NCBI GenBank assembly: GCA_034231615.1
Contig: CM067306.1
Coordinates: 45,142,094-45,206,093, forward strand
Direction of reading: 5' to 3'
From: Meghimatium bilineatum
Lineage: Eukaryota; Mollusca; Gastropoda; Stylommatophora; Philomycidae
Length of the DNA stretch: 64,000 nucleotides
The notes under the pieces were generated by a model that saw only the letters and a list, made by a program, of their open reading frames with translations, was not told the DNA's origin and ran no database searches. Each line of letters begins with the position of its first letter. The stretch's first letter is position 1. A program made the position numbers and the translations under genes. This document shows positions 1-64,000 of the stretch, piece after piece.

Positions 1-53
1 TTGTACTGCAGCTTTATACGTCAGAACACTGGCGTATTACACAAGAATTGGGT

Positions 54-224
54 GTATTGCAGTTTAGTACGCCAAAACTCGTTGTATTCTGGGATATTAC
101 TCACAAATTCATTGTACTGAAGCTTACTACACTAGAATTGAGTGTATTCTGGCCTATAACACATGATTTCGTTGTATGGCACCTTAATACCACAGATCAC
201 TGGCGTATTAAACACGAATTGTGT
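54..224 (+). repeat. Representative 171-bp monomer with six subunits A-F
   Basis: This is the first complete monomer. Subunits are A 54-83, B 84-113, C 114-143, D 144-173, E 174-200 and F 201-224 (30+30+30+30+27+24 bp). A-E each begin gta(t/c)t or a close variant. By eye A and E match at 22 of 27 positions, B and D at 23 of 30, D and F at 18 of 24, A and C at 19 of 30, and A and D at 18 of 30 (consensus subunits compared). The pattern is therefore (A-type, B-type) three times. C carries an AAGCTT palindrome in nearly every monomer, and E often carries CTGCAG. A digest at AAGCTT should give a ladder with 171-bp steps. Monomer start is arbitrary; I chose A because its border is sharp. Confidence 0.93.
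174..224 (+). repeat. E/F half-unit: a 60-bp dimer shortened by 9 bp
   Basis: The third dimer of the monomer measures 51 bp rather than 60. Aligning E with A and F with D places the missing bases together: the last three of E and the first six of F, the gtattc that opens B and D. One 9-bp deletion at the E/F border explains both shortened subunits. The same length is seen at every E/F border I checked throughout the window, so the event predates amplification of the array. Confidence 0.8.
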
Positions 225-1046
225 GTATTGCAGTTTAGTACGCCAAAAATCGTTGTATTCTGGGATATTACTCACATATTCATTGTACTTAAGCTTACTA
301 CACTAGAATTGAGTGTATTCTGGCCTATTACACATGATTTCGTTGTATTGCAGCTTAATGCGTCAGAACACTGGCGTATCACATACGAATTGGGTGTATT
401 GCAGTTTAGTACGCCACAACTGGTTGTATTCTGGCACATTACTCACAAATTCATTGTACTGAAGCTTACTACACTAGAATTGAGTGTATTCTGGCCTATA
501 ACACATGATTTCGTTGTATGGCACCTTAATACTGCAGATCACTGGCGTATTAAACACGAATTGGGTGTATTGCAGTTTAGTACGCCAAAAATCCTTGTAT
601 TCTGGGATATTACTCACATATTCATTGTACTGAAGCTTACTACACTAGAATTGAGTGTATTCTGGCCTATTACACATGATTTCGTTGTATTGCAGCATAA
701 TGCGTCAGAACACTGGCGTATCACATACGAATTGGGTGTATTGCAGTTTACTACGCCACAACTGGTTGTATTCTGGCACATTACTCACAAATTCATTGTA
801 CTGAAGCTTACTACACTAGAATTGAGTGTATACTGGCCTATTGCACATGATTTTGTTGTATTGCACCTTAATACTGCAGAACACTGGCGTATTAAACACG
901 AATTGGGTGTATTGTAGTTTAGTACGCCAAAACTCGTTGTATTCTGGCATATTACTCACAAATTCATTGTACTGAAGCTTACTACACTAGAATTGAGTGT
1001 ATTCTGGCCTATTGCATATGATTCCATTGTACTGCAGCTTTATACG

Positions 1047-2813
1047 TCAGAACACTGGCGTATTACACAAGAATTGGGTGTATTGCAGTTTAGTACGCCA
1101 AAAATCGTTGTATTCTGGGATATTACTCACATATTCATTGTACTGAAGCTTACTACACTAGAATTGAGTGTATTCTGGCCTATTACACATGATTTCGTTG
1201 TATTGCAGCTTAATGCGTCAGAACACTGGCGTATCACATACGAATTGGGTGTATTGCAGTTTAGTACGCCACAACTGGTTGTATTCTGGCACATTACTCA
1301 CAAATTCATTGTACTGAAGCTTACTACACTAGAATTGAGTGTATACTGGCCTATTGCACATGATGTTGTTGTATTGCACCTTAATCCTGCAGAACACTGG
1401 CGTATTAAACACGAATTGGGTGTATTGTAGTTTAGTACGCCAAAACTCGTTGTATTCTGGCATATTACTCACAAATTCATTGTACTGAAGCTTACTACAC
1501 TAGAATTGGGTGTTTTCTAGCCTATTGCACATGATTTCGTTGTACTGCAGCTTAATACGTCAGAACACTGGCGTATTACACACACATTTGGTGTATTGCA
1601 GTTTAGTACGCCAAAACTCGTTGTATTCTGGCATATTACTCACAAATTGGGTGTACTGAAGCTTACTACACTAGAATTGAGTGTATTCTGGCCTATTGCA
1701 CATGATTCCGTTGTACTGCAGCTTAATACGTCAGAACATTGGCGTATTACACAAGAATTGGGTGTATTGCAGTTTAGTACGCCAAAACTCGTTGTATTCT
1801 GGGATATTACTCACAAATTCATTGTACTGAAGCTTACTACACTAGAATTGAGTGTATTCTAGCCTATTACACATGATTTCGTTGTAGTGCAGCTTAATAC
1901 TTCAGAACACTGGCGTATTACACAAGAATTGGGTGTATTGCAGTTTAGTACGCCAAAAATCGTTGTATTCTGGGATATTACTCACATATTCATTGTACTG
2001 AAGCTTACTACACTAGAATTGAGTGTATTCTGGCCTATTACACATGACTTCGTTGTATTGCAGCTTAATGCGTCAGAACACTGGCGTATCACATACGAAT
2101 TGGGTGTATTGCAGTTTAGTACGCCACAACTGGTTGTATTCTGGCACATTACTCACAAATTCATTGTACTGAAGCTTACTACACTAGAATTGAGTGTATA
2201 CTGGCCTATTGCACATGATTTTGTTGTATTGCACCTTAATCCTGCAGAACACTGGCGTATTAAACACGAATTGGGTGTATTGTAGTTTAGTACGCCAAAA
2301 CTCGTTGTATTCTGGCATATTACTCACAAATTCATTGTACTGAAGCTTACTACACTAGAATTGGGTGTTTTCTAGCCTATTGCACATGATTTCGTTGTAC
2401 TGCAGCTTAATACGTCAGAACACTGGCGTATTACACACACATTTGGTGTATTGCAGTTTAGTACGCCAAAACTCGTTGTATTCTGGCATATTACTCACAA
2501 ATTGGGTGTACTGAAGCTTACTACACTAGAATTGAGTGTATTCTGGCCTATTGCACATGATTCCGTTGTACTGCAGCTTAATACGTCAGAACATTGGCGT
2601 ATTACACAAGAATTGGGTGTATTGCAGTTTAGTACGCCAAAACTCGTTGTATTCTGGGATATTACTCACAAATTCATTGTACTGAAGCTTACTACACTAG
2701 AATTGAGTGTATTCTAGCCTATTACACATGATTTCGTTGTAGTGCAGCTTAATACTTCAGAACACTGGCGTATTACTCAAGAATTGGGTGTATTGCAGTT
2801 TAGTACGCCAAAA
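1047..2813. repeat. 855-bp (5-monomer) tandem duplication
   Basis: Bases 1047-1958 recur at 1902-2813, a shift of exactly 855 bp. The interval 1596-1862 and its partner 2451-2717 translate identically. Differences noted include catgatgttg (about 1364) against catgattttg, and catgatttc (about 1192) against catgacttc. The copies diverge on the right, where aaaatc becomes aaactc in subunit A. The same 5-monomer arrangement is present again at about 5363-6744 because the region was later duplicated as a whole. Confidence 0.85.
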
Positions 2814-4093
2814 CTCGTTGTATTCTGGGATATTACTCACACATTCATTGTACTGAAGCTTACTACACTAGAATTGAGTGTATTCTGGCCTATAACACAT
2901 GATTTCGTTGTATGGCACCTTAATACTGCAGATCACTGGCGTATTAAACACGAATTGGGTGTATTGCAGTTTAGTACGCCAAAAGTCGTTGTATTCTGGG
3001 ATATTACTCACATATTCATTGTACTGAAGCTTACTACACTAGAATTGAGTGTATTCTGGCCTATTACACATGATTTCGTTGTATTGCAGCTTAATGCGTC
3101 AGAACACTGGCGTATCACATACGAATTGGGTGTATTGCAGTTTAGTACGCCACAACTGGTTGTATTCTGGCACATTACTCACAAATTCATTGTACTGAAG
3201 CTTACTACACTAGAATTGAGTGTATACTGGCCTATTGCACATGATTTTGTTGTATTGCACCTTAATACTGCAGAACACTGGCGTATTAAACACGAATTGG
3301 GTGTATTGTAGTTTAGTACGCCAAAACCCGTTGTATTCTGGCATATTACTCACAAATTCATTGTACTGAAGCTTACTACACTAGAATTGAGTGTATTCTG
3401 GCCTATTGCATATGATTCCATTGTACTGCAGCTTTATACGTCAGAACACTGGGGTATTACACAAGAATTGGGTGTATTGCAGTTTAGTACGCCAAAACTC
3501 GTTGTATTCTGGGATATTACTCACAAATTCATTGTACTGAAGCTTACTACACTAGAATTGAGTGTATTCTGGCCTATAACACATGATTTCGTTGTATGGC
3601 ACCTTAATACTGCAGATCACTGGCGTATTAAACACGAATTGGGTGTATTGCAGTTTAGTACGCCAAAAATCGTTGTATTCTGGGATATTACTCACATATT
3701 CATTGTACTGAAGCTTACTACACTAGAATTGAGTGTATACTGGCCTATTGCACATGATTTTGTTGTATTGCACCTTAATACTGCAGAACACTGGCGTATT
3801 AAACACGAATTGGGTGTATTGTAGTTTAGTACGCCAAAACTCGTTGTATTCTGGCATATTACTCACAAATTCATTGTACTGAAGCTTACTACACTAGAAT
3901 TGTGTGTATTCTGGCCTATTACACATGATTTCGTTGTATTGCAGCATAATGCGTCAGAACACTGGCGTATCACATACGAATTGGGTGTATTGCAGTTTAG
4001 TACGCCACAACTGGTTGTATTCTGGAACATTACTCACAAATTCATTGTACTGAAACTTACTACACTATAATTGAGTGTATTCTGGCCCATTAC

Positions 4094-4104
4094 ACATGAT
4101 ACGT
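4094..4104 (+). other. 1-bp deletion type 1 at the D/E border (six copies)
   Basis: The usual catgatttcgttg is shortened to catgatacgttg. It always follows ctataattgagtg and ctggcccattac, in a class 8 context. Copies are at about 4101, 9401, 12307, 13502, 15211 and 15893. All sit in the same haplotype, so one founder mutation spread by duplication. At about 22391 the same haplotype has the full-length ttcgttg, either an ancestral form or one repaired by exchange. Confidence 0.9.
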
Positions 4105-4445
4105 TGTATTGCACCTTAATACTGCAGAACACTGGCGTATTAAACACGATTTGGGTGTATTGCAGTTTAGTTCGCCAAAACTCATTGTATTCTGGCATAT
4201 TACTCACACATTGTGTGTACTGAAGCGTACTACACTAGAATCGAGTGTTTTCTGGCCTATTGCACATGATTTCGTTGTACTGCAGCTTAATACGTCAGAA
4301 CACTGGCGTATTACACACAAATTGTGTGTATTGCAGTTTAGTACGCCAAAACTCGTTGTATTCTGGCATATTACTCACAAATTAGGTGTACTGAAGCTTA
4401 CTACACTAGAATTGAGTGTATTCTGGCCTATTGCATATGATTCCG

Positions 4446-5362
4446 TTGTACTGCAGCTTTATACGTCAGAACACTGGCGTATTACACAAGAATTGGGTGT
4501 ATTGCAGTTTAGTACGCCAAAACTCGTTGTATTCTGGGATATTACTCACAAATTCATTGTACTGAAGCTTACTACACTAGAATTGAGTGTATTCTGGCCT
4601 ATAACACATGATTTCGTTGTATGGCACCTTAATACTGCAGATCACTGGCGTATTAAACACGAATTGTGTGTATTGCAGTTTAGTACGCCAAAAATCGTTG
4701 TATTCTGGGATATTACTCACATATTCATTGTACTTAAGCTTACTACACTAGAATTGAGTGTATTCTGGCCTATTACACATGATTTCGTTGTATTGCAGCT
4801 TAATGCGTCAGAACACTGGCGTATCACATACGAATTGGGTGTATTGCAGTTTAGTACGCCACAACTGGTTGTATTCTGGCACATTACTCACAAATTCATT
4901 GTACTGAAGCTTACTACACTAGAATTGAGTGTATTCTGGCCTATAACACATGATTTCGTTGTATGGCACCTTAATACTGCAGATCACTGGCGTATTAAAC
5001 ACGAATTGGGTGTATTGCAGTTTAGTACGCCAAAAATCCTTGTATTCTGGGATATTACTCACATATTCATTGTACTGAAGCTTACTACACTAGAATTGAG
5101 TGTATTCTGGCCTATTACACATGATTTCGTTGTATTGCAGCATAATGCGTCAGAACACTGGCGTATCACATACGAATTGGGTGTATTGCAGTTTAGTACG
5201 CCACAACTGGTTGTATTCTGGCACATTACTCACAAATTCATTGTACTGAAGCTTACTACACTAGAATTGAGTGTATACTGGCCTATTGCACATGATTTTG
5301 TTGTATTGCACCTTAATCCTGCAGAACACTGGCGTATTAAACACGAATTGGGTGTATTGTAG
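4446..5362. repeat. Second copy of 1-917 (displaced 4445 bp)
   Basis: This block matches 1-917 at a displacement of 4445 bp, which is 26 monomers less the 1-bp deletion at about 4101. Few changes are visible: ccacagatcac near 190 against tgcagatcac here, tttactacg near 748 against tttagtacg, and an aat-cct variant in subunit E near 5317. A third related copy lies at about 9891-10662, and a fourth in 20139-21089. Confidence 0.85.
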
Positions 5363-7528
5363 TTTAGTACGCCAAAACTCGTTGTATTCTGGCATATTAC
5401 TCACAAATTCATTGTACTGAAGCTTACTACACTAGAATTGGGTGTTTTCTAGCCTATTGCACATGATTTCGTTGTACTGCAGCTTAATACGTCAGAACAC
5501 TGGCGTATTACACACACATTTGGTGTATTGCAGTTTAGTACGCCAAAACTCGTTGTATTCTGGCATATTACTCACAAATTGGGTGTACTGAAGCTTACTA
5601 CACTAGAATTGAGTGTATTCTGGCCTATTGCACATGATTCCGTTGTACTGCAGCTTAATACGTCAGAACATTGGCGTATTACACAAGAATTGGGTGTATT
5701 GCAGTTTAGTACGCCAAAACTCGTTGTATTCTGGGATATTACTCACAAATTCATTGTACTGAAGCTTACTACACTAGAATTGAGTGTATTCTAGCCTATT
5801 ACACATGATTTCGTTGTAGTGCAGCTTAATACTTCAGAACACTGGCGTATTACACAAGAATTGGGTGTATTGCAGTTTAGTACGCCAAAAATCGTTGTAT
5901 TCTGGGATATTACTCACATATTCATTGTACTGAAGCTTACTACACTAGAATTGAGTGTATTCTGGCCTATTACACATGACTTCGTTGTATTGCAGCTTAA
6001 TGCGTCAGAACACTGGCGTATCACATACGAATTGGGTGTATTGCAGTTTAGTACGCCACAACTGGTTGTATTCTGGCACATTACTCACAAATTCATTGTA
6101 CTGAAGCTTACTACACTAGAATTGAGTGTATACTGGCCTATTGCACATGATTTTGTTGTATTGCACCTTAATCCTGCAGAACACTGGCGTATTAAACACG
6201 AATTGGGTGTATTGTAGTTTAGTACGCCAAAACTCGTTGTATTCTGGCATATTACTCACAAATTCATTGTACTGAAGCTTACTACACTAGAATTGGGTGT
6301 TTTCTAGCCTATTGCACATGATTTCGTTGTACTGCAGCTTAATACGTCAGAACACTGGCGTATTACACACACATTTGGTGTATTGCAGTTTAGTACGCCA
6401 AAACTCGTTGTATTCTGGCATATTACTCACAAATTGGGTGTACTGAAGCTTACTACACTAGAATTGAGTGTATTCTGGCCTATTGCACATGATTCCGTTG
6501 TACTGCAGCTTAATACGTCAGAACATTGGCGTATTACACAAGAATTGGGTGTATTGCAGTTTAGTACGCCAAAACTCGTTGTATTCTGGGATATTACTCA
6601 CAAATTCATTGTACTGAAGCTTACTACACTAGAATTGAGTGTATTCTAGCCTATTACACATGATTTCGTTGTAGTGCAGCTTAATACTTCAGAACACTGG
6701 CGTATTACACAAGAATTGGGTGTATTGCAGTTTAGTACGCCAAAACTCGTTGTATTCTGGGATATTACTCACACATTCATTGTACTGAAGCTTACTACAC
6801 TAGAATTGAGTGTATTCTGGCCTATAACACATGATTTCGTTGTATGGCACCTTAATACTGCAGATCACTGGCGTATTAAACACGAATTGGGTGTATTGCA
6901 GTTTAGTACGCCAAAAATCGTTGTATTCTGGGATATTACTCACATATTCATTGTACTGAAGCTTACTACACTAGAATTGAGTGTATTCTGGCCTATTACA
7001 CATGATTTCGTTGTATTGCAGCTTAATGCGTCAGAACACTGGCGTATCACATACGAATTGGGTGTATTGCAGTTTAGTACGCCACAACTGGTTGTATTCT
7101 GGCACATTACTCACAAATTCATTGTACTGAAGCTTACTACACTAGAATTGAGTGTATACTGGCCTATTGCACATGATTTTGTTGTATTGCACCTTAATAC
7201 TGCAGAACACTGGCGTATTAAACACGAATTGGGTGTATTGTAGTTTAGTACGCCAAAACTCGTTGTATTCTGGCATATTACTCACAAATTCATTGTACTG
7301 AAGCTTACTACACTAGAATTGAGTGTATTCTGGCCTATTGCATATGATTCCATTGTACTGCAGCTTTATACGTCAGAACACTGGGGTATTACACAAGAAT
7401 TGGGTGTATTGCAGTTTAGTACGCCAAAACTCGTTGTATTCTGGGATATTACTCACAAATTCATTGTACTGAAGCTTACTACACTAGAATTGAGTGTATT
7501 CTGGCCTATAACACATGATTTCGTTGTA
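5363..7528. repeat. Second copy of 1431-3596 (displaced 3932 bp)
   Basis: The displacement is 23 monomers less 1 bp. Landmark stops and variants at 1596, 1887, 2451, 2742 and 3387 all reappear at 5528, 5819, 6383, 6674 and 7319. I found few differences, among them aaagtcgtt near 2993 against aaaatcgtt here. The copies part at about 3597/7529, where one continues as gtatggcacc (class 1) and the other as gtactgcagc (class 5). The switch lies at the D/E border, as expected for an exchange between misaligned monomers. Confidence 0.88.
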
Positions 7529-8267
7529 CTGCAGCTTAATACGTCAGAACACTGGCGTATTACACACACATTTGGTGTATTGCAGTTTAGTACGCCAAAA
7601 CTCGTTGTATTCTGGCATATTACTCACAAATTGGGTGTACTGAAGCTTACTACACTAGAATTGAGTGTATTCTGGCCTATTGCACATGATTCCGTTGTAC
7701 TGCAGCTTAATACGTCAGAACATTGGCGTATTACACAAGAATTGGGTGTATTGCAGTTTAGTACGCCAAAACTCGTTGTATTCTGGGATATTACTCACAA
7801 ATTCATTGTACTGAAGCTTACTACACTAGAATTGAGTGTATTCTAGCCTATTACACATGATTTCGTTGTAGTGCAGCTTAATACTTCAGAACTCTGGCGT
7901 ATTACACACAAATTGGGTGTATTGCAGTTTAGTACGCCAAAAATCGTTGTATTCTGGGATATTACTCACATATTCATTGTACTGAAGCTTACTACACTAG
8001 AATTGAGTGTATTCTGGCCTATTACACATGATTTCGTTGTATTGCAGCTTAATGCGTCAGAACACTGGCGTATTAAACACGATTTGGGTGTATTGCAGTT
8101 TAGTTCGCGAAAACTCATTGTATTCTGGCATATTACTCACACATTGTGTGTACTGAAGCGTACTACACTAGAATTGAGTGTATACTGGCCTATTGCACAT
8201 GATTTTGTTGTATTGCACCTTAATACTGCAGAACACTGGCGTATTAAACACGAATTGGGTGTATTGT

Positions 8268-9256
8268 AGTTTAGTACGCCAAAACTCGTTGTATTCTGGC
8301 ATATTACTCACAAATTCATTGTACTGAAGCTTACTACACTAGAATTGAGTGTATTCTGGCCTATTGCATATGATTCCATTGTACTGCAGCTTTATACGTC
8401 AGAACACTGGCGTATTACACAAGAATTGGGTGTATTGCAGTTTAGTACGCCAAAACTCGTTGTATTCTGGGATATTACTCACAAATTCATTGTACTGAAG
8501 CTTACTACACTAGAATTGAGTGTATTCTGGCCTATAACACATGATTTCGTTGTATGGCACCTTAATACTGCAGATCACTGGCGTATTAAACACGAATTGG
8601 GTGTATTGCAGTTTAGTACGCCAAAAATCGTTGTATTCTGGGATATTACTCACATATTCATTGTACTGAAGCTTACTACACTAGAATTGAGTGTATACTG
8701 GCCTATTGCACATGATTTTGTTGTATTGCACCTTAATACTGCAGAACACTGGCGTATTAAACACGAATTGGGTGTATTGTAGTTTAGTACGCCAAAACTC
8801 GTTGTATTCTGGCATATTACTCACAAATTCATTGTACTGAAGCTTACTACACTAGAATTGGGTGTTTTCTAGCCTATTGCACATGATTTCGTTGTACTGC
8901 AGCTTAATACGTCAGAACACTGGCGTATTACACACACATTTGGTGTATTGCAGTTTAGTACGCCAAAACTCGTTGTATTCTGGCATATTACTCACAAATT
9001 GGGTGTACTGAAGCTTACTACACTAGAATTGAGTGTATTCTGGCCTATTGCACATGATTCCGTTGTACTGCAGCTTAATACGTCAGAACATTGGCGTATT
9101 ACACAAGAATTGGGTGTATTGCAGTTTAGTACGCCAAAACTCGTTGTATTCTGGGATATTACTCACAAATTCATTGTACTGAAGCTTACTACACTAGAAT
9201 TGAGTGTATTCTAGCCTATTACACATGATTTCGTTGTAGTGCAGCTTAATACTTCA
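8268..9256. repeat. Composite block built from two earlier modules
   Basis: Bases 8268-8782 match 3310-3824 at a displacement of 4958 bp (29 monomers less 1 bp). The adjoining 8783-9256 matches 5363-5836 at 3420 bp (20 monomers exactly). The junction falls at the class 4 TAG around 8778-8780. The block is thus a mosaic, with each part copied in register with the 171-bp unit. Confidence 0.75.
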
Positions 9257-9339
9257 GAACTCTGGCGTATTACACACAAATTGGGTGTATTGCAGTTTAG
9301 TACGCTAAAATTCGTTGTATTCTGGCATATTACTCACAA

Positions 9340-10640
9340 ATTCATTGTACTGAAACTTACTACACTATAATTGAGTGTATTCTGGCCCATTACACATGAT
9401 ACGTTGTATTGCACCTTAATACTGCAGAACACTGGCGTATTAAACACGATTTGGGTGTATTGCAGTTTAGTTCGCCAAAACTCATTGTATTCTGGCATAT
9501 TACTCACACATTGTGTGTACTGAAGCGTACTACACTAGAATCGAGTGTTTTCTTGCCTATTGCACATGATTTCGTTGTACTGCAGCTTAATACGTCAGAA
9601 CACTGGCGTATTACACACAAATTGTGTGTATTGCAGTTTAGTACGCCAAAACTCGTTGTATTCTGGCATATTACTCACAAATTGGGTGTACTGAAGCTTA
9701 CTACACTAGAATTGAGTGTATTCTGGCCTATTGCATATGATTCCGTTGTACTGCAGCTTTATACGTCAGAACACTGGCGTATTACACAAGAATTGGGTGT
9801 ATTGCAGTTTAGTACGCCAAAACTCGTTGTATTCTGGGATATTACTCACAAATTCATTGTACTGAAGCTTACTACACTAGAATTGAGTGTATTCTGGCCT
9901 ATAACACATGATTTCGTTGTATGGCACCTTAATAATGCAGATCACTGGCGTATTAAACACGAATTGTGTGTATTGCAGTTTAGTACGCCAAAAATCGTTG
10001 TATTCTGGGATATTACTCACATATTCATTGTACTTAAGCTTACTACACTAGAATTGAGTGTATTCTGGCCTATTACACATGATTTCGTTGTATTGCAGCT
10101 TAATGCGTCAGAACACTGGCGTATCACATACGAATTGGGTGTATTGCAGTTTAGTACGCCACAACTGGTTGTATTCTGGCACATTACTCACAAATTCATT
10201 GTACTGAAGCTTACTACACTAGAATTGAGTGTATTCTGGCCTATAACACATGATTTCGTTGTATGGCACCTTAATACTGCAGATCACTGGCGTATTAAAC
10301 ACGAATTGGGTGTATTGCAGTTTAGTACGCCAAAAATCCTTGTATTCTGGGATATTACTCACATATTCATTGTACTGAAGCTTACTACACTAGAATTGAG
10401 TGTATTCTGGCCTATTACACATGATTTCGTTGTATTGCAGCATAATGCGTCAGAACACTGGCGTATCACATACGAATTGGGTGTATTGCAGTTTAGTACG
10501 CCACAACTGGTTGTATTCTGGCACATTACTCACAATTTCATTGTACTGAAGCTTACTACACTAGAATTGAGTGTATACTGGCCTATTGCACATGATATTG
10601 TTGTATTGCACCTTAATACTGCAGAACACTGGCGTATTAA
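9340..10640. repeat. Copy of 4040-5340 (displaced 5300 bp)
   Basis: This approximately 1.3-kb block repeats 4040-5340 at 31 monomers less 1 bp, and both copies carry the D/E 1-bp deletion (4101 and 9401). Changes seen here are ttcttgcct for ttctggcct near 9552, aataatgca for aatactgca near 9932, cacaatttc for cacaaattc near 10533, and gatattgtt for gattttgtt near 10594. It begins with class 8 and runs through 3,1,2,1,2,4. Confidence 0.85.
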
Positions 10641-12120
10641 ACACGAATTGGGTGTATTGTAGTTTAGTACGCCAAAACTCGTTGTATTCTGGCATATTAC
10701 TCACAAATTCATTGTACTGAAGCTTACTACACTAGAATTGAGTGTATTCTGGCCTATTGCATATGATTCCGTTGTACTGCAGCTTTATATGTCAGAACAC
10801 TGGCGTATTACACAAGAATTGGGTGTATTGCAGTTTAGTACGCCAAAACTCGTTGTATTCTGGGATATTACTCACAAATTCATTGTACTGAAGCTTACTA
10901 CACTAGAATTGAGTGTATTCTGGCCTATAACACATGATTTCGTTGTATGGCACCTTAATACTGCAGATCACTGGCGTATTAAACACGAATTAGGTGTATT
11001 GCAGTTTAGTACGCCAAGAATCGTTGTATTCTGGGATATTACTCACATATTCATTGTACTGAAGCTTACTACACTAGAATTGAGTGTATTCTGGCCTATT
11101 ACACATGATTTCGTTGTATTGCAGCTTAATGCGTCAGAACACTGGCGTATCACATACGAATTGGGTGTATTGCAGTTTAGTACGCCACAACTGGTTGTAT
11201 TCTGGCACATTACTCACAAATTCATTGTACTGAAGCTTACTACACTAGAATTGAGTGTATACTGGCCTATTGCACATGATTTTGTTGTATTGCACCTTAA
11301 TACTGCAGAACACTGGCGTATTAAACACGAATTGGGTGTATTGTAGTTTAGTACGCCAAAACTCGTTGTATTCTGGCATATTACTCACAAATTCATTGTA
11401 CTGTAGCTTACTACACTAGAATTGGGTGTTTTCTGGCCTATTGCACATGATTTCGTTGTACTGCAGCTTAATACGTCAGAACACTGGCGTATTACACACA
11501 CATTTGGTGTATTGCAGTTTAGTACGCCAAAACTCGTTGTATTCTGGCATATTACTCACAAATTGGGTGTACTGAAGCTTACTACACTAGAATTGAGTGT
11601 ATTCTGGCCTATTGCACATGATTCCGTTGTACTGCAGCTTAATACGTCAGAACATTGGCGTATTACACAAGAATTGGGTGTATTGCAGTTTAGTACGCCA
11701 AAACTCGTTGTATTCTGGGATATTACTCACAAATTCATTGTACTGAAGCTTACTACACTAGAATTGAGTGTATTGTGGCCTATTACACATGATTTCGTTG
11801 TATTGCAGCTTAATACTTCAGAACACTGGCGTATTAAACACGAATTGGGAGTATTGCAGTTTAGTAAGCTAAAACTCGTTGTATTCTGGCATATTACTCA
11901 CAAATTCATTGTACTGAAGCTTACTACACTAGAATTGAGTGTATTCTGGCCTATTGCACATGATTTCGTTGTACTGCAGCTTAATACGTCAGAACACTGG
12001 CGTATTACACAAGAATTGGGTGTATTGCAGTTTAGTACGACAAAACTCGTTGTATTCTGGCATATTACTCACAAATTCATTGTACTGAAGCTTACTACAC
12101 TAGAATTGATTGTATTCTAG

Positions 12121-16728: not shown

Positions 16729-17744
16729 ACTGGCCTATTGCACATGATTTTGTTGTATTGCACCTTAATACTGCAGAACACTGGCGTATTAAACACGAAT
16801 TGGGTGTATTGTAGTTTAGTACGCCAAAACTCGTTGTATTCTGGCATATTACTCACAAATTCATTGTACTGAAGCTTACTACACTAGAATTGGGTGTTTT
16901 CTGGCCTATTGCACATGATTTCGTTGTACTGCAGCTTAATACGTCAGAACACTGGCGTATTACACACACATTTGGTGTATTGCAGTTTAGTTCGCCAAAA
17001 CTCGTTGTATTCTGGCATATTACTCACAAATTGGGTGTACTGAAGCTTACTACACTAGAATTGAGTGTATTCTGGCCTATTGCACATGATTCCGTTGTAC
17101 TGCAGCTTAATACGTCAGAACAATGGCGTATTACACAAGAATTGGGTGTATTGCAGTTTAGTACGCCAAAACTCGTTGTATTCTGGGATATTACTCACAA
17201 ATTCATTGTACTGAAGCTTACTACACTAGAATTGAGTGTATTGTGGCCTATTACACATGATTTCGTTGTATTGCAGCTTAATACTTCAGAACACTGGCGT
17301 ATTAAACACGAATTGGGAGTATTGCAGTTTAGTAAGCTAAAACTCGTTGTATTCTGGCATATTACTCACAAATTCATTGTACTGAAGCTTACTACACTAG
17401 AATTGAGTGTATTCTGGCCTATTGCACATGATTTCGTTGTACTGCAGCTTAATACGTCAGAACACTGGCGTATTACACAAGAATTGGGTGTATTGCAGTT
17501 TAGTACGACAAAACTCGTTGTATTCTGGCATATTACTCACAAATTCATTGTACTGAAGCTTACTACACTAGAATTGAGTGTATTCTAGCCTATTACACAT
17601 GATTTCGTTGTAGTGCAGCTTAATACTTCAGAACTCTGGCGTATTACTCACACATTGGGTGTATTGCAGTTTAGTACGCTAAAATTCGTTGTATTCTGGC
17701 ATATTACTCACAAATTCATTGTACTGAAACTTACTACACTATAA

Positions 17745-25300: not shown

Positions 25301-25360
25301 GTATTGCACCTTAATACTGCAGAACACTGCCGTATTAAACACGAATTGGGTGTATTGTAG

Positions 25361-53222: not shown

Positions 53223-56200
53223 TTTAGTACGCCAAAACTCGTTGTATTCTGGCATATTACTCACAAATTGGTTGTACTGAAGCTTACTACACTAGAATTG
53301 AGTGTATTCTGGCCAATTGCACATGATTTCTTTGTACTGCAGCTTAATAGGTCAGAAAACTGGCGTATTACACAAGAATTGGGTGTATTGCAGTTTATTA
53401 CGCCAAAACTCGTTGTATTCTGGGATATTACTAACAAATTCATTGTACTGAAGCTTACTACACTAGAATTGAGTGTATTCTAGCCTATTATACATGATTT
53501 CGTTGTAGTGCAGCTTAATACTTCAGAACTCTGGCGTATTACACACAAATTCGGTGTATTGTAGTTTAGTACGCCAAAAATCGTTGTATTCTGGGAGATT
53601 ACTCACATATTCATTGTACTGAAGCTTACTACACTAGAATTGAGTGTATTCTGGCCTATTACACATGATTTCGTTGTATTGCAGCTTAATACGTCAGAAC
53701 ACTGGCGTATTAAACACGAATTGGGTGTATTGCAGTTTAGTACGCCAAAACTCGTTGTATTCTGGCATATTACTCACAAATTGGGTGTACTGAAGCTTAC
53801 TACACTAGAATTGAGTGTATTCTGGCCTATTGCACATGATTTCGTTGTAGTGCAGCTTAATACTTCAGAACTCTTGCGTATTACACACAAATTGGGTGTA
53901 TTGCAGTTTAGTATTCTAAAACTCGTTGTATTCTGGCATATTACTCACAAATTCATTGTACTGAAGCTTACTACACTAGAAGTGAGTGTATTCTGGCCCA
54001 TTACACATGATTTCGTTGTATTGCACCTTAATACTGCAGAACACTGGCGTATTAAACACGAATTGGGTGTATTGCAGTTTAGTGCGCCAAAACTCGTTGT
54101 ATTCTGGGATATTACTCACAAATTGGGTGTACTGAAGCTTACTACACTAGGATTGAGTGTATTCTGGCCTATTGTACATGATTTCGTTGTACTGCAGCTT
54201 AATACGTCAGGACACTGGCGTATTACACAAGAATTGAGTGTATTGCAGTTTAGTACGCCAAAACTCGTTGTATTCTGGGATATTACTCACAAATTCATTG
54301 TACTGAAGCTTAATGCCCTAGAATTGAGTGTATTCTGGCCTATAACACATGATTTCGTTGTATGGCACCTTAATACTGCAGATCACTGGCGTATTAAACA
54401 CGAATTGGGTGTATTGCAGTTTAGTACGCCAAAAATCGTTGTATTCTGGCATATTACTCACAAATTGGTTGTACTGAAGCTTACTACACTAGAATTGAGT
54501 GTATTCTGGCCAATTGCACATGATTTCTTTGTACTGCAGCTTAATAGGTCAGAAAACTGGCGTATTACACAAGAATTGGGTGTATTGCAGTTTAGTACGC
54601 CAAAACTCGTTGTATTCTGGGATATTACTCACAAATTCATTGTACTGAAGCTTACTACAATAGAATTGAGTATATTCTGGCCTATAACACATGATTTCGT
54701 TGTATTACATCTTAATACTGCAGATCACTGGCGTATTAAACACGAATTGGGTGTATTGCAGTTTAGTATGCCAAAAATCGTTGTATTCTGGGATATTACT
54801 CACATATTCATTGTACTGAAGCTTACTACACTAGAATTGAGTGTATTCTGGCCTATTACACATGATTTCGTTGTAGTGCAGCTTAATGCGTCAGAACATT
54901 GGCGTATCACATACGAATTGGGTGTATTGCAGTTTAGTACGCCACAACTGGTTGTATTCTGGCACATTACTCACAAATTCATTGTACTGAAGCTTACTAC
55001 ACTAGAATTGAGTGTATTCTGGTCCATTACACATGATTTCGTTGTATTGCAGCTTAATACTTCAGAACACTGGCGTATTAAACACGATTTGGGAGTATTG
55101 CAGTTTAGTACGCCAAAACTCGTTGTATTCTGGCATATTAATCACAAATTCATTGCATTGAAGCTTACTACACTAGAATTGAGTGTATACTGGCCTATTG
55201 CAAATGATTTTGTTGTATTGCACCTTAATACTGCAGAACACTGGCGTATTAAACACGAATTGGGTGTATTGTAGTTTAGTACGCCAAAACTCGTTGTATT
55301 CTGGCATATTACTCACAAATTGGTTGTACTGAAGCTTACTACACTAGAATTGAGTGTATTCTGGCCAATTGCACATGATTTCTTTGTACTGCAGCTTAAT
55401 AGGTCAGAAAACTGGCGTATTACACAAGAATTGGGTGTATTGCAGTTTATTACGCCAAAACTCGTTGTATTCTGGGATATTACTAACAAATTCATTGTAC
55501 TGAAGCTTACTACACTAGAATTGAGTGTATTCTAGCCTATTATACATGATTTCGTTGTAGTGCAGCTTAATACTTCAGAACTCTGGCGTATTACACACAA
55601 ATTCGGTGTATTGTAGTTTAGTACGCCAAAAATCGTTGTATTCTGGGAGATTACTCACATATTCATTGTACTGAAGCTTACTACACTAGAATTGAGTGTA
55701 TTCTGGCCTATTACACATGATTTCGTTGTATTGCAGCTTAATACGTCAGAACACTGGCGTATCACATACGAATTGGTTGTATTGCAGTTTAGTACGCCAC
55801 AACTGGTTGTATTCTGGCATATTACTCACAAATTCATTGTACTGAAGCTTACTACACTAGAATTGAGTGTATTCTGGCCTATTACACATGATTTCGTTGT
55901 ATTGCAGCTTAATACGTCAGAACACTGGCGTATTAAACACGAATTGGGTGTATTGCAGTTTAGTACGCCAAAACTCGTTGTATTCTGGCATATTACTCAC
56001 AAATTGGGTGTACTGAAGCTTACTACACTAGAATTGAGTGTATTCTGGCCTATTGCACATGATTTCGTTGTAGTGCAGCTTAATACTTCAGAACTCTTGC
56101 GTATTACACACAAATTGGGTGTATTGCAGTTTAGTATTCTAAAACTCGTTGTATTCTGGCATATTACTCACAAATTCATTGTACTGAAGCTTACTACACT

Positions 56201-57326
56201 AGAAGTGAGTGTATTCTGGCCCATTACACATGATTTCGTTGTATTGCACCTTAATACTGCAGAACACTGGCGTATTAAACACGAATTGGGTGTATTGCAG
56301 TTTAGTACGCCAAAACTCGTTGTATTCTGGGATATTACTCACAAATTGGGTGTACTGAAGCTTACTACACTAGGATTGAGTGTATTCTGGCCCGTTGTAC
56401 ATGATTTCGTTGTACTGCAGCTTAATACGTCAGGACACTGGCGTATTACACAAGAATTGAGTGTATTGCAGTTTAGTACGTCAAAACTCGTTGTATTCTG
56501 GGATATTACTCACAAATTCATTGTACTGAAGCTTAATGCACTAGAATTGAGTGTATTCTGGCCTATTGCATATGATTCCGTTGTACTGCAGCATTATACG
56601 TCAGAACACTGGCGTATTACACAAGAATTGGGTGTATTGCAGTTTAGTACGCCAAAACTCGTTGTATTCTGGGATATTACTCACAAATTCATTGTACTGA
56701 AGCTTACTACAATAGAATTGAGTATATTCTGGCCTATAACACATGATTTCGTTGTATTACATCTTAATACTGCAGATCACTGGCGTATTAAACACGAATT
56801 GGGTGTATTGCAGTTTAGTATGCCAAAAATCGTTGTATTCTGGGATATTACTCACATATTCATTGTACTGAAGCTTACTACACTAGAATTGAGTGTATTC
56901 TGGCCTATTACACATGATTTCGTTGTAGTGCAGCTTAATGCGTCAGAACATTGGCGTATCACATACGAATTGGGTGTATTGCAGTTTAGTACGCCACAAC
57001 TGGTTGTATTCTGGCACATTACTCACAAATTCATTGTACTGAAGCTTACTACACTAGAATTGAGTGTATTCTGGTCCATTACACATGATTTCGTTGTATT
57101 GCAGCTTAATACTTCAGAACACTGGCGTATTAAACACGATTTGGGAGTATTGCAGTTTAGTACGCCAAAACTCGTTGTATTCTGGCATATTAATCACAAA
57201 TTCATTGCATTGAAGCTTACTACACTAGAATTGAGTGTATACTGGCCTATTGCACATGATTTTGTTGTATTGCACCTTAATACTGCAGAACACTGGCGTA
57301 TTAAACACGAATTGGGTGTATTGTAG
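53223..57326. repeat. 2052-bp (12-monomer) HOR, two copies
   Basis: Copy 1 is 53223-55274 and copy 2 is 55275-57326, both ending at a class 4 TAG. The lengths are equal but the contents are not. Copy 2 has one extra monomer near 55764-55870 (gaattggttgta form). It has a class 3 monomer near 56570, where copy 1 has class 1 plus a shortened gatttctttg cassette near 54340-54570. The gain and loss cancel. A third partial copy begins at 57327 and matches up to about 57660. Confidence 0.83.
53640..55274 (+). other. Open frame of 544 codons, judged a repeat by-product
   Basis: One of two equally long stop-free stretches (the other is 55692-57326). It begins at TTG inside subunit C and ends at a class 4 TAG. 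The translation is a degenerate ten-residue repeat with V-L or V-F near the start of each ten and frequent W and H, with no signal peptide, membrane segment or family that I recognise. The first in-frame ATG is near 54766, deep inside. No promoter or ribosome-binding context distinguishes it from the surrounding monomers. I see no reason to call it a gene. Confidence 0.85.
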
Positions 57327-57587
57327 TTTAGTACGCCAAAACTCGTTGTATTCTGGCATATTACTCACAAATTGGTTGTACTGAAGCTTACTACACTAGA
57401 ATTGAGTGTATTCTGGCCAATTGCACATGATTTCTTTGTACTGCAGCTTAATAGGTCAGAAAACTGGCGTATTACACAAGAATTGGGTGTATTGCAGTTT
57501 ATTACGCCAAAACTCGTTGTATTCTGGGATATTACTAACAAATTCATTGTACTGAAGCTTACTACACTAGAATTGAGTGTATTCTAG

Positions 57588-60266
57588 CCTATTATACATG
57601 ATTTCGTTGTAGTGCAGCTTAATACTTCAGAACTCTGGCGTATTACACACAAATTCGATGTATTGTAGTTTAGTACGCCAAAAATCGTTGTATTCTGGGA
57701 GATTACTCACATATTCATTGTACTGAAGCTTACTACACTAGAATTGAGTGTATTCTGGCCTATTACACATGATTTCGTTGTATTGCAGCTTAATACGTCA
57801 GAACACTGGCGTATCACATACGAATTGGTTGTATTGCAGTTTAGTACGCCACAACTGGTTGTATTCTGGCATATTACTCACAAATTCATTGTACTGAAGC
57901 TTACTACACTATAATTGAGTGTATTCTGGCCCATTACACATGATTTCGTTGTATTGCACCTTAATACTGCAGAACACTGGCGTATTAAACACGAATTGGG
58001 TGTATTGCAGTTTAGTACGCCAAAACTCGTTGTATTCTGGCATATTACTCACAAATTGGGTGTACTGAAGCTTACTACACTAGAATTGAGTGTATTCTGG
58101 CCTATTGCACATGATTTCGTTGTAGTGCAGCTTAATACTTCAGAACTCTTGCGTATTACACACAAATTGGGTGTATTGCAGTTTAGTATTCTAAAACTCG
58201 TTGTATTCTGGCATATTACTCACAAATTCATTGTACTGAAGCTTACTACACTAGAAGTGAGTGTATTCTGGCCCATTACACATGATTTCGTTGTATTGCA
58301 CCTTAATACTGCAGAACACTGGCGTATTAAACACGAATTGGGTGTATTGCAGTTTAGTACGCCAAAACTCGTTGTATTCTGGGATATTACTCACAAATTG
58401 GGTGTACTGAAGCTTACTACACTAGGATTGAGTGTATTCTGGCCTATTGTACATGATTTCGTTGTACTGCAGCTTAATACGTCAGGACACTGGCGTATTA
58501 CACAAGAATTGAGTGTATTGCAGTTTAGTACGCCAAAACTCGTTGTATTCTGGGATATTACTCACAAATTCATTGTACTGAAGCTTAATGCACTAGAATT
58601 GAGTGTATTCTGGCCTATAACACATGATTTCGTTGTATGGCACCTTAATACTGCAGATCACTGGCGTATTAAACACGAATTGGATGTATTGCAGTTTAGT
58701 ACGCCAAAAATCGTTGTATTCTGGGATATTACTCACAAATTCATTGTACTGAAGCTTAATGCACTAGAATTGAGTGTATTCTGGCCTATAACACATGATT
58801 TCGTTGTATGGCACCTTAATACTGCAGATCACTGGCGTATTAAACACGAATTGGGTGTATTGCAGTTTAGTACGCCAAAAATCGTTGTATTCTGGGATAT
58901 TACTCACAAATTCATTGTACTGAAGCTTAATGCACTAGAATTGAGTGTATTCTGGCCAATTGCACATGATTTCTTTGTACTGCAGCTTAATAGGTCAGAA
59001 AACTGGCGTATTACACAAGAATTGGGTGTATTGCAGTTTATTACGCCAAAACTCGTTGTATTCTGGGATATTACTAACAAATTCATTGTACTGAAGCTTA
59101 CTACACTAGAATTGAGTGTGTTCTAGCCTATTATACATGATTTCGTTGTAGTGCAGCTTAATACTTCAGAACTCTGGCGTATTACACACAAATTCGATGT
59201 ATTGTAGTTTAGTACGCCAAAAATCGTTGTATTCTGGGAGATTACTCACATATTCATTGTACTGAAGCTTACTACACTAGAATTGAGTGTATTCTGGCCT
59301 ATTACACATGATTTCGTTGTATTGCAGCTTAATACGTCAGAACACTGGCGTATCACATACGAATTGGTTGTATTGCAGTTTAGTACGCCACAACTGGTTG
59401 TATTCTGGCATATTACTCACAAATTCATTGTACTGAAGCTTACTACACTATAATTGAGTGTATTCTGGCCCATTACACATGATTTCGTTGTATTGCACCT
59501 TAATACTGCAGAACACTGGCGTATTAAACACGAATTGGGTGTATTGCAGTTTAGTACGCCAAAACTCGTTGTATTCTGGCATATTACTCACAAATTGGGT
59601 GTACTGAAGCTTACTACACTAGAATTGAGTGTATTCTGGCCTATTGCACATGATTTCGTTGTAGTGCAGCTTAATACTTCAGAACTCTTGCGTATTACAC
59701 ACAAATTGGGTGTATTGCAGTTTAGTATTCTAAAACTCGTTGTATTCTGGCATATTACTCACAAATTCATTGTACTGAAGCTTACTACACTAGAAGTGAG
59801 TGTATTCTGGCCCATTACACATGATTTCGTTGTATTGCACCTTAATACTGCAGAACACTGGCGTATTAAACACGAATTGGGTGTATTGCAGTTTAGTACG
59901 CCAAAACTCGTTGTATTCTGGGATATTACTCACAAATTGGGTGTACTGAAGCTTACTACACTAGGATTGAGTGTATTCTGGCCTATTGTACATGATTTCG
60001 TTGTACTGCAGCTTAATACGTCAGGACACTGGCGTATTACACAAGAATTGAGTGTATTGCAGTTTAGTACGCCAAAACTCGTTGTATTCTGGGATATTAC
60101 TCACAAATTCATTGTACTGAAGCTTAATGCACTAGAATTGAGTGTATTCTGGCCTATAACACATGATTTCGTTGTATGGCACCTTAATACTGCAGATCAC
60201 TGTCGTATTAAACACGAATTGGGTGTATTGCAGTTTAGTACGCCAAAAATCGTTGTATTCTGGGAT
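57588..60266. repeat. 1539-bp (9-monomer) HOR, two copies
   Basis: Bases 57588-58727 recur at 59127-60266, a shift of nine monomers exactly. Both copies carry caaattcgatgtattgtag (near 57650 and 59189), ctataattgag (near 57909 and 59448) and ttagtattctaaaactc (near 58184 and 59723). Differences seen are gtattctag near 57578 against gtgttctag near 59117, and ctggcgtatt near 58660 against ctgtcgtatt near 60199. Confidence 0.85.
58537..58954 (+). repeat. Single-monomer tandem run, about 2.4 near-identical copies
   Basis: With period 171 the sequence from about 58537 to about 58954 repeats itself with only gatgta (58683) against ggtgta (58854) differing. Elsewhere in the window directly adjacent monomers usually differ at many positions. 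This is therefore a fresh one-monomer expansion inside the older 9-monomer unit. The other copy of that unit (59127-60479) lacks it. Confidence 0.85.
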
Positions 60267-60479
60267 ATTACTCACATATTCATTGTACTGAAGCTTACTA
60301 CTCTAGAATTGAGTGTATTCTGGCCTATTACACATGATTTCGTTGTATTGCAGCTTAATACGTCAGAACACTGGCGTATCACATACGAATTGGTTGTATT
60401 GCAGTTTAGTACGCCACAACTGGTTGTATTCTGGCATATTACTCACAAATTCATTGTACTGAAGCTTACTACACTATAA

Positions 60480-62531
60480 TTGAGTGTATTCTGGCCCATT
60501 ACACATGATTTCGTTGTATTGCACCTTAATACTGCAGAACACTGGCGTATTAAACACGAATTGGGTGTATTGCAGTTTAGTACGCCAAAACTCGTTGTAT
60601 TCTGGGATATTACTCACAAATTGGGTGTACTGAAGCTTACTACACTAGGATTGAGTGTATTCTGGCCTATTGTACATGATTTCGTTGTACTGCAGCTTAA
60701 TACGTCAGGACACTGGCGTATTACACAAGAATTGAGTGTATTGCAGTTTAGTACGCCAAAACTCGTTGTATTCTGGGATATTACTCACAAATTCATTGTA
60801 CTGAAGCTTAATGCACTAGAATTGAGTGTATTCTGGCCTATAACACATGATTTCGTTGTATGGCACCTTAATACTGCAGATCACTGGCGTATTAAACACG
60901 AATTGGGTGTATTGCAGTTTAGTACGCCAAAAATCGTTGTATTCTGGCATATTACTCACAAATTGGTTGTACTGAAGCTTACTACACTAGAATTGAGTGT
61001 ATTCTGGCCAATTGCACATGATTTCGTTGTATGGCACCTTAATACTGCAGATCACTGGCATATTAAACACGAATTGGGTGTATTGCAGTTTAGTACGCCA
61101 AAAATCGTTGTATTCTTGGATATTACTCACACATTCATTGTACTGAAGCTTACTACACTAGAATTGAGTGTATTCTGGCCTATTACACATGATTTCGTTG
61201 TATTGCAGCTTAATACGTCAGAACACTGGCGTATCACATACGAATTGGGCGTATTGCAGTTTAGTACGCCACAACTGGTTGTATTCTGGGATATTACTCA
61301 CAAATTCATTGTACTGAAGCTTACTACACTAGAATTGAATGTATTCTAGCCTATTACACATGATTTCCTTGTTGTGCAGCTTAATTCTTCAGAACTCTGG
61401 CGTATTACACACAAATTAGGTGTATTGCAGTTTAGTACGCTAAATCTCGTTGTATTCTGGCATATTACTCACAAATTCATTGTACTGAAGCTTACTACAC
61501 TATAATTGAGTGTATTCTGGCCCATTACACATGATTTCGTTGTATTGCATCTTAATACTGCAGAACACTGGCGTATTAAACACGAATTGGGTGTATTGCA
61601 GTTTAGTACGCCAAAACTCGTTGTATTCTGGGATATTACTCACAAATTGGGTGTACTGAAGCTTACTACACTAGGATTGAGTGTATTCTGGCCTATTGTA
61701 CATGATTTCGTTGTACTGCAGCTTAATACGTCAGGACACTGGCGTATTACACAAGAATTGAGTGTATTGCAGTTTAGTACGCCAAAACTCGTTGTATTCT
61801 GGGATATTACTCACAAATTCATTGTACTGAAGCTTAATGCACTAGAATTGAGTGTATTCTGGCCTATAACACATGATTTCGTTGTATGGCACCTTAATAC
61901 TGCAGATCACTGGCGTATTAAACACGAATTGGGTGTATTGCAGTTTAGTACGCCAAAAATCGTTGTATTCTGGCATATTACTCACAAATTGGTTGTACTG
62001 AAGCTTACTACACTAGAATTGAGTGTATTCTGGCCAATTGCACATGATTTCGTTGTATGGCACCTTAATACTGCAGATCACTGGCATATTAAACACGAAT
62101 TGGGTGTATTGCAGTTTAGTACGCCAAAAATCGTTGTATTCTTGGATATTACTCACACATTCATTGTACTGAAGCTTACTACACTAGAATTGAGTGTATT
62201 CTGGCCTATTACACATGATTTCGTTGTATTGCAGCTTAATACGTCAGAACACTGGCGTATCACATACGAATTGGGCGTATTGCAGTTTAGTACGCCACAA
62301 CTGGTTGTATTCTGGGATATTACTCACAAATTCATTGTACTGAAGCTTACTACACTAGAATTGAATGTATTCTAGCCTATTACACATGATTTCCTTGTTG
62401 TGCAGCTTAATTCTTCAGAACTCTGGCGTATTACACACAAATTAGGTGTATTGCAGTTTAGTACGCTAAATCTCGTTGTATTCTGGCATATTACTCACAA
62501 ATTCATTGTACTGAAGCTTACTACACTATAA
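60480..62531. repeat. 1026-bp (6-monomer) HOR, two virtually identical copies
   Basis: Copy 1 is 60480-61505 and copy 2 is 61506-62531. Reading them line by line I found one difference, C at 60524 against T at 61550 in subunit E. The match extends left to about 60425 and right to about 62654. Inside are the ctaggattgag, gtcaggacac, aagcttaatgcac, ggcatattaaacac and ttcttggat variants. I judge this the youngest duplication in the window. Confidence 0.9.
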
Positions 62532-64000
62532 TTGAGTGTATTCTGGCCCATTACACATGATTTCGTTGTATTGCATCTTAATACTGCAGAACACTGGCGT
62601 ATTAAACACGAATTGGGTGTATTGCAGTTTAGTACGCCAAAACTCGTTGTATTCTGGCATATTACTCACAAATTGGGTGTACTGAAGCTTACTACACTAG
62701 AATTGAGTGTATTCTGGCCTATTGCACATGATTTCGTTGTACTGCAGCTTAATACGTCAGAACACTGGCGTATTACACAAGAATTGAGTGTATTGCAGTT
62801 TAGTACGACAAAACTCGTTGTATTCTGGGATATTACTCACAAATTCATTGTACTGAAGCTTACTACAATAGAATTGAGTATATTCTGGCCTATAACACAT
62901 GATTTCGTTGTATTACATCTTAATACTGCAGATCACTGGCGTATTAAACACGAATTGGGTGTATTGCAGTTTAGTATGCCAAAATTTTTGTATTCTGGGA
63001 TATTACTCACATATTCATTGTACTGAAGCTTACTACACTAGAATTGAGTGTATTCTGGCCTATTACTCATGATTTCGTTGTAGTGCAGCTTAATGCGTCA
63101 GAACACTGGCGTATCACATACGAATTGGGTGTATTGCAGTTTAGTACGCCACAACTGGTTGTATTCTGGCACATTACTCACAAATTCATTGTACTGAAGC
63201 TTACCACACTAGAATTGAGTGTATTCTGGTCCATTACACATGATTTCGTTGTATTGCAGCTTAATACTTCAGAACACTGGCGTATTAAACACGATTTGGG
63301 AGTATTGCAGTTTAGTACGCCAAAACTCGTTGTATTCTGGCATATTAATCACAAATTCATTGCATTGAAGCTTACTACACTAGAATTGAGTGTATACTGG
63401 CCTATTGCACATGATTTCGTTGTATTGCAGCTTAATACGTCAGAACACTGGCGTATCACATACGAATTGGTTGTATTGCAGTTTAGTACGCCACAACTGG
63501 TTGTATTCTGGCATATTACTCACAAATTCATTGTACTGAAGCTTACTACACTATAATTGAGTGTATTCTGGCCCATTACACATGATTTCGTTGTATTGCA
63601 CCTTAATACTGCAGAACACTGGCGTATTAAACACGAATTGGGTGTATTGCAGTTTAGTACGCCAAAACTCGTTGTATTCTGGCATATTACTCACAAATTG
63701 GGTGTACTGAAGCTTACTACACTAGAATTGAGTGTATTCTGGCCTATTGCACATGATTTCGTTGTAGTGCAGCTTAATACTTCAGAACTCTTGCGTATTA
63801 CACACAAATTGGGTGTATTGCAGTTTAGTATTCTAAAACTCGTTGTATTCTGGCATATTACTCACAAATTCATTGTACTGAAGCTTACTACACTAGAAGT
63901 GAGTGTATTCTGGCCCATTACACATGATTTCGTTGTATTGCACCTTAATACTGCAGAACACTGGCGTATTAAACACGAATTGGGTGTATTGCAGTTTAGT

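What the first reader, a model, noticed from the sequence alone, without database searches (positions are those of the whole stretch)
1..64000. A 64-kb uninterrupted HOR satellite with a 171-bp monomer that is not alpha satellite
The monomer length equals that of primate alpha satellite, and the array shows the same type of higher-order organisation. The sequence, however, has none of the alpha consensus that I know and is built from an entirely different 30-bp unit. A similar monomer length in an unrelated family would support the idea that about one nucleosome per monomer is favoured. The absence of any transposon in 64 kb suggests active homogenisation, as in a functional centromere core.
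Basis: partly seen in the sequence, partly recalled or inferred. Interest (0 to 1): 0.7.

Follow-up and report, generated by a model that had tools for sequence, protein, structure and literature searches.

The report
Land-slug centromere-like satellite DNA
This is part of a 1.7-million-base block of repeated DNA on chromosome 9 of a land slug, and related repeats form one block on most of its other chromosomes, so it is probably the DNA on or beside which the slug's centromeres sit.

Summary
All 64,000 bases are one head-to-tail 171-bp satellite: 374 complete monomers, 18 small deletions, no insertion. Monomer classes follow a strongly non-random order but show no fixed HOR period. The C9 array spans about 1.73 Mb, with a homogeneous middle and diverged sides. 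Related arrays were found on 19 of 25 chromosomes; every listed place fell in one internal cluster per chromosome, but four of ten listings were capped. The core word occurs 94,989 times. Best reading: the slug's (peri)centromeric satellite; no chromatin data exist here.

The 171-bp length is not the shared feature: it is six 30-bp units minus 9 bp, and some chromosomes use units near 450-1000 bp. What all 19 sampled arrays share is a ~10-bp AT-dinucleotide rhythm. No perfect CENP-B box in 17 samples. Not alpha satellite; a new member of a known kind.

The parts
1..64000 (+). Uninterrupted head-to-tail 171-bp satellite array (374 complete monomers), part of a ~1.73-Mb array on contig C9
   Evidence: TRF; wrap-around alignment; genome place; array ends
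1..30 (+). Subunit 1 of the first monomer, B-type 30-bp unit
   Evidence: subunit layout on the consensus; window position 1 is consensus position 1
31..51 (+). Subunit 2, truncated A-type unit of 21 bp (head of 9 bp missing)
   Evidence: the 9-bp gap against the 60-bp dimer is the commonest gap in the ten 171-bp samples
52..81 (+). Subunit 3, B-type (77% identical to subunit 1)
82..111 (+). Subunit 4, A-type
112..141 (+). Subunit 5, called B-type from its GAAGCTTA word; its identity to the B units (0.67, 0.63) is hardly above that to the A units (0.63, 0.60). Source of the 24-mer core used for the genome count
   Evidence: conservation profile; genome count
142..171 (+). Subunit 6, A-type (77% identical to subunit 4)
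1366..2776 (+). First copy of the longest exact repeat in the window (1411 bp), a recent local duplication of several monomers
5298..6708 (+). Second copy of the 1411-bp exact repeat

Best explanation
The window is part of the main (peri)centromeric satellite of the land slug Meghimatium bilineatum. A 30-bp unit with a strong 10-bp AT rhythm gave a 60-bp A-B dimer; three dimers, one having lost 9 bp, gave the 171-bp monomer, which is found on many chromosomes and is kept alike locally by unequal exchange or slippage (inferred). On C9 a homogeneous 171-bp middle, in which the window lies, is followed on both sides by more diverged copies, with words of a second, ~499-bp family at both ends. The middle most likely carries CENP-A chromatin, and AT steps phased to the helix favour wrapping in one rotational setting (inferred). 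Shown here: the repeat structure, the position on 19 of 25 chromosomes, the layering on C9, the AT rhythm. Inferred: centromere function, CENP-A, how the repeat spread.
For: One internal cluster per contig on 19 of 25 chromosome contigs, short-arm share of the cluster centre 0.22-0.48 (places; C9 ends; arithmetic). 94,989 genome hits of a 24-mer core with up to 2 mismatches, control 0. C9 array about 1.73 Mb with both ends in sequence without N. Lag-171 identity 0.89-0.91 in five 2-kb samples from 44.85 to 45.45 Mb, 0.49-0.84 to the left, 0.75-0.45 to the right. Family-2 word in the leftmost and the three rightmost samples of 14. Strongest AT-dinucleotide period at 9.90-10.06 bp in 19 of 19 samples.
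Against: No chromatin or FISH data. Six chromosome contigs (C6, C11, C13, C17, C21, C24) gave no listed place. The assembly has contig N50 1.36 Mb and was scaffolded by Hi-C (PMC10770140, passages), so order, strand and even placement of satellite contigs may be wrong. No perfect CENP-B box, though that box is not needed in all animals (recalled). The repeat could be pericentromeric only.
Confidence: 0.6

Rival explanations
1. Pericentromeric heterochromatin only: the arrays flank or lie near the centromere, while the kinetochore sits on another sequence that was not examined here.
For: One cluster per chromosome fits this equally well. Six chromosome contigs lack listed places. Listed spans vary from 3 kb (C19) to 3.6 Mb (C8), though these are lower bounds.
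Against: The homogeneous middle of the C9 array with diverged sides is the layout known for active alpha-satellite cores (recalled). No other sequence was looked for, so this is weak.
Confidence: 0.25
2. Heterochromatic knobs unrelated to centromeres, one per chromosome by chance or by exchange between non-homologous chromosomes.
For: No functional data; internal satellite blocks that are not centromeric exist in other organisms (recalled).
Against: A single internal site on each of the 19 chromosomes with listed places, and none of the listed places at a contig end, would be unusual for knobs.
Confidence: 0.1
3. Assembly effect: satellite contigs were gathered into one place per pseudo-chromosome by Hi-C scaffolding, so the clusters say little about biology.
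For: Contig N50 1.36 Mb and 3D-DNA scaffolding (passages of PMC10770140). Both strands occur inside the cluster on C3, C14, C20, C22 and C23, as misjoined contigs would give.
Against: The window has no N. Both C9 junctions with unique sequence lie within sequence without N. Variants are specific to chromosomes, for example blocks on C20 and C23.
Confidence: 0.05

Closest known systems
Primate alpha satellite
   Same: 171-bp monomer (PMC4904201 and PMC8122249, passages), megabase arrays, monomer classes in a non-random order, a homogeneous middle with diverged sides, families shared between chromosomes (the last two recalled for alpha).
   Different: Mollusc host; monomer made of six 30-bp units; unit length not kept between chromosomes; no fixed HOR period in the window; no perfect CENP-B box in 17 samples.
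Tribolium madens TmSat1/TmSat2 (PMC13081366, outline and passages)
   Same: Two related satellites from one ancestral element occupy multi-megabase, likely (peri)centromeric regions; strand switches within arrays.
   Different: Other sequence and unit (~110 bp). There the inversion sites are conserved; here strand switches on 5 of 19 chromosomes may be scaffolding effects and were not examined.
Arabidopsis 178-bp, rice 155-bp and maize 156-bp centromere satellites (table passage of PMC8122249)
   Same: Near-nucleosome-length tandem repeats at centromeres.
   Different: Unrelated hosts; no sequence comparison was made here.
Laevicaulis alte, land slug with proposed holocentric chromosomes (PMC13336835, passages)
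   Same: Terrestrial slug with a complete assembly and a centromere search.
   Different: Its authors propose no single localized centromere; here one satellite cluster per chromosome points to single sites.

Membership tests
Primate alpha satellite | Monomer of about 171 bp | tested here: met
   (358 of 374 monomers exactly 171 bp)
Primate alpha satellite | Regular n-mer higher-order repeat | tested here: not met
   Non-random class order but no lag from 1 to 79 stands out
Primate alpha satellite | CENP-B box NTTCGNNNNANNCGGGN in part of the monomers (motif from PMC4904201) | tested here: not met
   0 perfect boxes in 17 samples of 10 kb, both strands; 9 sites with one mismatch, close to shuffles. 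Two-mismatch sites are above shuffles on the + strand in 14 of 17 samples and below in C1, C2 and C8, so a distant resemblance is repeated but no box
Primate alpha satellite | Sequence homology to the alpha consensus | not tested
   No alpha sequence was compared; the host is a mollusc
Centromeric satellite (general) | One megabase-scale locus per chromosome | tested here: inconclusive
   One cluster on each of 19 of 25 chromosome contigs; 6 without listed places; some listed spans are small; four of ten listings capped at 100 places
Centromeric satellite (general) | Homogeneous core with more diverged sides | tested here: met
   C9 only, 14 samples
Centromeric satellite (general) | CENP-A or kinetochore occupancy | not testable with these tools
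Protein-coding tandem repeat | Reading frame open throughout | tested here: not met
   756-1725 stops in each of six frames

The most novel reading that the evidence does not exclude
The constraint on this satellite is helical phase rather than sequence or monomer length: chromosomes use different unit lengths (171, ~499, 451/740 and others) yet all sampled arrays keep AT steps every 9.9-10.06 bp, so selection for rotationally fixed (possibly CENP-A) nucleosomes may decide which indels spread.
Probability: 0.2. Interest if true: 0.65.

Novelty: new member of a known kind. Interest (0 to 1): 0.42.

Why it matters
It gives a concrete candidate for centromere DNA in a land slug. A recent paper on another land slug proposes holocentric chromosomes from entropy and Hi-C (PMC13336835, passages), so a single-site satellite here is a useful counterpoint. 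It also offers a natural test of whether monomer length or helical phase matters, because related arrays with different unit lengths coexist in one genome. The equality with the 171 bp of alpha satellite is best read as coincidence.

Tried and rejected
Rejected: a coding repeat (171 = 57 codons, but 756-1725 stops per frame); an RNA family; a CENP-B box (one 30-bp junction looked close by eye; the scan found no perfect box and 9 one-mismatch sites in 17 samples); strong hairpins (one monomer folded as DNA, z = -1.48, 19 of 200 shuffles at least as stable; no inverted repeats in 700 bp); a fixed HOR length; a general preference for indels near 10 bp (deletion lengths are spread over 1-12 with few longer). 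A viral-contig scan with a 22-mer of the core found nothing. The gap tests are kept only as weak support: one 9-bp gap is sometimes split in two by the alignment, which biases them, and the samples share ancestry. An earlier count said 13 of 19; the recount is 12 of 19.

Papers: listings (20 of 113 shown; 25 of 142; 25 of 2,557; 0 found; 25 of 248; 20 of 916; 10 of 18; 8 of 9; 10 of 7,095) showed no paper that by title or abstract start describes this repeat. In the genome paper PMC10770140 (passages and outline) the word search found 'centromer' 0 times and 'satellite' once, a table row of 0.48%. Supplements were not read; Dfam and Repbase were not available.

Full report
What is in the window. 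All 64,000 bases form one head-to-tail array with period 171. Lag-171 identity over the window is 0.876. An alignment to the tandem consensus places every base, with 18 deletion events totalling 22 bases and no insertion. Of 374 complete monomers 358 are exactly 171 bp, 12 are 170, 2 are 169 and 2 are 168; mean pairwise identity is 91.3%. There is no N, no Rfam match at gathering score, and no frame open throughout.

Inner structure. The monomer consists of six subunits of 30, 21, 30, 30, 30 and 30 bp. Subunits 1 and 3 share 77% identity, as do 4 and 6; the other pairs of full-length subunits share 53-67%. I read the monomer as B-A'-B-A-B-A: three A-B dimers of 60 bp, one A having lost its 9-bp head. 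The place of subunit 5 as a B rests on its GAAGCTTA word, since its identities to B units (0.67, 0.63) and A units (0.63, 0.60) hardly differ. TRF reports a 60-bp level.

Higher-order structure. Clustering at 6% distance gives 12 groups, 10 of them recurrent. Neighbours follow a strong order (1.28 bits; 1000 shuffles: mean 0.20, maximum 0.27) and avoid their own class (11 pairs, 55 expected). Yet mean identity stays between 0.903 and 0.920 for all lags 1-79, and the best lag changes from place to place. The longest exact repeat is 1411 bp. This is a mosaic of shared words, not a regular HOR.

Where it is. The window is G000:C9:45142094-45206093 of a 1,612,235,226-base assembly in 32 contigs. 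C1-C25 are chromosome-sized and C26-C32 are below 0.25 Mb. The published Meghimatium bilineatum genome has 25 pseudo-chromosomes of 25.66-135.71 Mb, 7 unanchored scaffolds and scaffold N50 68.08 Mb; the 22 chromosome lengths visible in the passages (chr1-8, chr12-25) agree with the contigs of the same number within 0.03 Mb (PMC10770140, passages). A nuclear copy of mitochondrial DNA on C2 reads without stops under the invertebrate code and with 6 stops under the vertebrate code. As I read it by eye, its order is nad4, a tRNA, nad2, then cox1 with a TTG start, like the mitogenome table of Philomycus bilineatus (nad4-trnI-nad2-trnK; cox1 with TTG; PMC6471268, passages). ARAGORN and Rfam found no tRNA there.

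The C9 array. Of the first 20 samples of 2 kb from C9, 13 were wholly satellite and 7 had none. The left junction is at 44,569,818 and the right near 46,300,375, both in sequence without N. The length is about 1.73 Mb if no gap lies in parts not sampled. Lag-171 identity in 2-kb samples is 0.49, 0.78, 0.80 and 0.84 from 44.57 to 44.70 Mb, 0.89-0.91 in five samples from 44.85 to 45.45 Mb, and 0.75, 0.62, 0.45, 0.45 and 0.46 from 45.5 to 46.2 Mb (the whole 10 kb at 44.57 Mb gives 0.69). Identity to the window consensus is 0.94-0.95 in nine samples from 44.60 to 45.5 Mb, 0.83 at 44.57 and 0.88-0.89 in the four samples from 45.6 Mb on. A family-2 word occurs in the leftmost and the three rightmost of 14 samples. 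The window lies in the homogeneous part.

The rest of the genome. The 24-mer core occurs 94,989 times with up to 2 mismatches (66,289 and 28,700 by strand; control 0); at one per 171 bp that would be about 16 Mb, 1.0% of the genome. To place copies on many chromosomes I searched rare variants of core words. Listings stop at 100 places. Six are complete: 9 places; 4; 98; 100; 42; 95. Four are cut: 20 (100 of 94,989), 26 (100 of 796), 28 (100 of 293) and 43 (100 of 139). Listed places lie on 19 of 25 chromosome contigs: C1-C5, C7-C10, C12, C14-C16, C18-C20, C22, C23 and C25. On each they form one internal cluster, with short-arm share 0.22-0.48. None was listed on C6, C11, C13, C17, C21, C24 or the small contigs; that does not show absence. 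Spans of listed places run from 3 kb (C19) to 3.6 Mb (C8) and are lower bounds. Both strands occur within the cluster on C3, C14, C20, C22 and C23. Contig N50 is 1.36 Mb, so strand switches may come from scaffolding.

Two families. In 10-kb samples of 17 chromosomes (C9 taken from the window) 171 is the strongest period or equal to its multiples on C1, C2, C3, C7, C8, C9, C14, C20, C23 and C25. C4, C15, C16, C18 and C22 instead show 497-499, 716, 969 or 995 with only 0.29-0.36 at lag 171. C19 shows 451 and 740, and C5 is a mixture (171 at 0.46). Satellite cover in the 16 fetched samples is 99.8% or more, except 88% on C2 and 80% on C18, where the rest was not examined. All samples, with 3-kb samples of C10 and C12, align to one 60-bp dimer at 75-79% identity, and the ~499-bp arrays share a second set of small gaps. 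Family-2 words lie at one end of the listed span on C8, C20 (one place) and C23. This resembles the families of alpha satellite that are shared between chromosomes (recalled), but shows no relation to it.

The 10-bp rhythm. AA/TT/TA/AT steps have their strongest period (5-20 bp tested) at 9.90-10.06 bp in 19 of 19 samples, with power 23.7-67.2 in 500-bp pieces; 12 non-satellite loci give 2.0-5.3 and shuffled arrays 2.1-5.4. The 30-bp unit has 10-bp power 172 of about 300 and 30-bp power 0.4; 0.3% of 2000 shuffled 30-mers reach it. Spacings (under 130 bp) between TGTA[TC]T unit heads lie within 1 of a multiple of 10 in 99.6% of 2,320 cases in the ten 171-bp samples and 64% of 1,322 in the other nine; for the word TTAC, which is not a unit head, the share is only about 47% in both groups. 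Permuting gap lengths lowers coherence in 18 of 19 samples (C8 has one gap type and says nothing), and at most 5 of 100 permutations reach the real value in 12 of 19. With random lengths, real arrays exceed the mean in 11 of 11 samples, and at most 3 of 60 reach them in 7. Split gaps and shared ancestry weaken both tests. A neutral origin from a short repeat (identity 0.34 and 0.37 at lags 10 and 20) remains more likely than selection for phase.

CENP-B box. The motif (PMC4904201, passages) has no perfect match in 17 samples on either strand and 9 one-mismatch sites, near the shuffled level. Two-mismatch sites exceed shuffles on the + strand in 14 of 17 samples. I do not count this as a box.

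Function. The single internal site per chromosome, megabase size, abundance and layered divergence fit a (peri)centromeric satellite. Which part, if any, carries CENP-A is unknown. The nucleosome argument from 171 bp falls, because that length is not kept between chromosomes.

Novelty. The genome paper's main text holds no 'centromer' and one 'Satellite' row (0.48%) (word search; supplements not read). The listings of my paper searches showed no description of this repeat. I file it as a new member of a known kind.

Noticed in passing
L009 (C2:121988305-121991928): Nuclear copy of mitochondrial DNA with part of cox1 open under the invertebrate mitochondrial code (208 codons); beside it lies what looks by eye like a retrotransposon endonuclease/reverse transcriptase region.
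   Followed up: partly
C3, C14, C20, C22, C23: Core words occur on both strands within one cluster, like the macro-dyad layout reported in Tribolium (PMC13081366, passages), or scaffolding errors.
   Followed up: no
L077, just left of its position 9818 (C9:44,569,818): The left end of the C9 array abuts another, degenerate tandem repeat of about 45 bp (lag-45 identity 0.41).
   Followed up: no
L078:3099-3734 (-): ORF of 211 aa to the right of the C9 array that looks by eye like the end of a LINE reverse transcriptase; no family search was made.
   Followed up: no
L051-L057 (starts of C10, C11, C12, C13, C17, C21, C24): These seven contigs start with CCCTAA telomere repeats; C6, C9, C26 and C29 start with N.
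   Followed up: no
L060, L062, L063 (C28, C30, C31): Starts of small unplaced contigs look by eye like ribosomal RNA genes; not tested.
   Followed up: no
window 1-64000, + strand frames 2 and 3: Stop-free runs of 556 and 569 codons arise although the frames hold 756 and 770 stops, because 171 is a multiple of 3; judged chance.
   Followed up: partly
C20:53285702-53480977 and C23:40096888-40187589: Variants of the core word are amplified in one block on a single chromosome (80 and 17 of 98 places), a sign of local spread.
   Followed up: no
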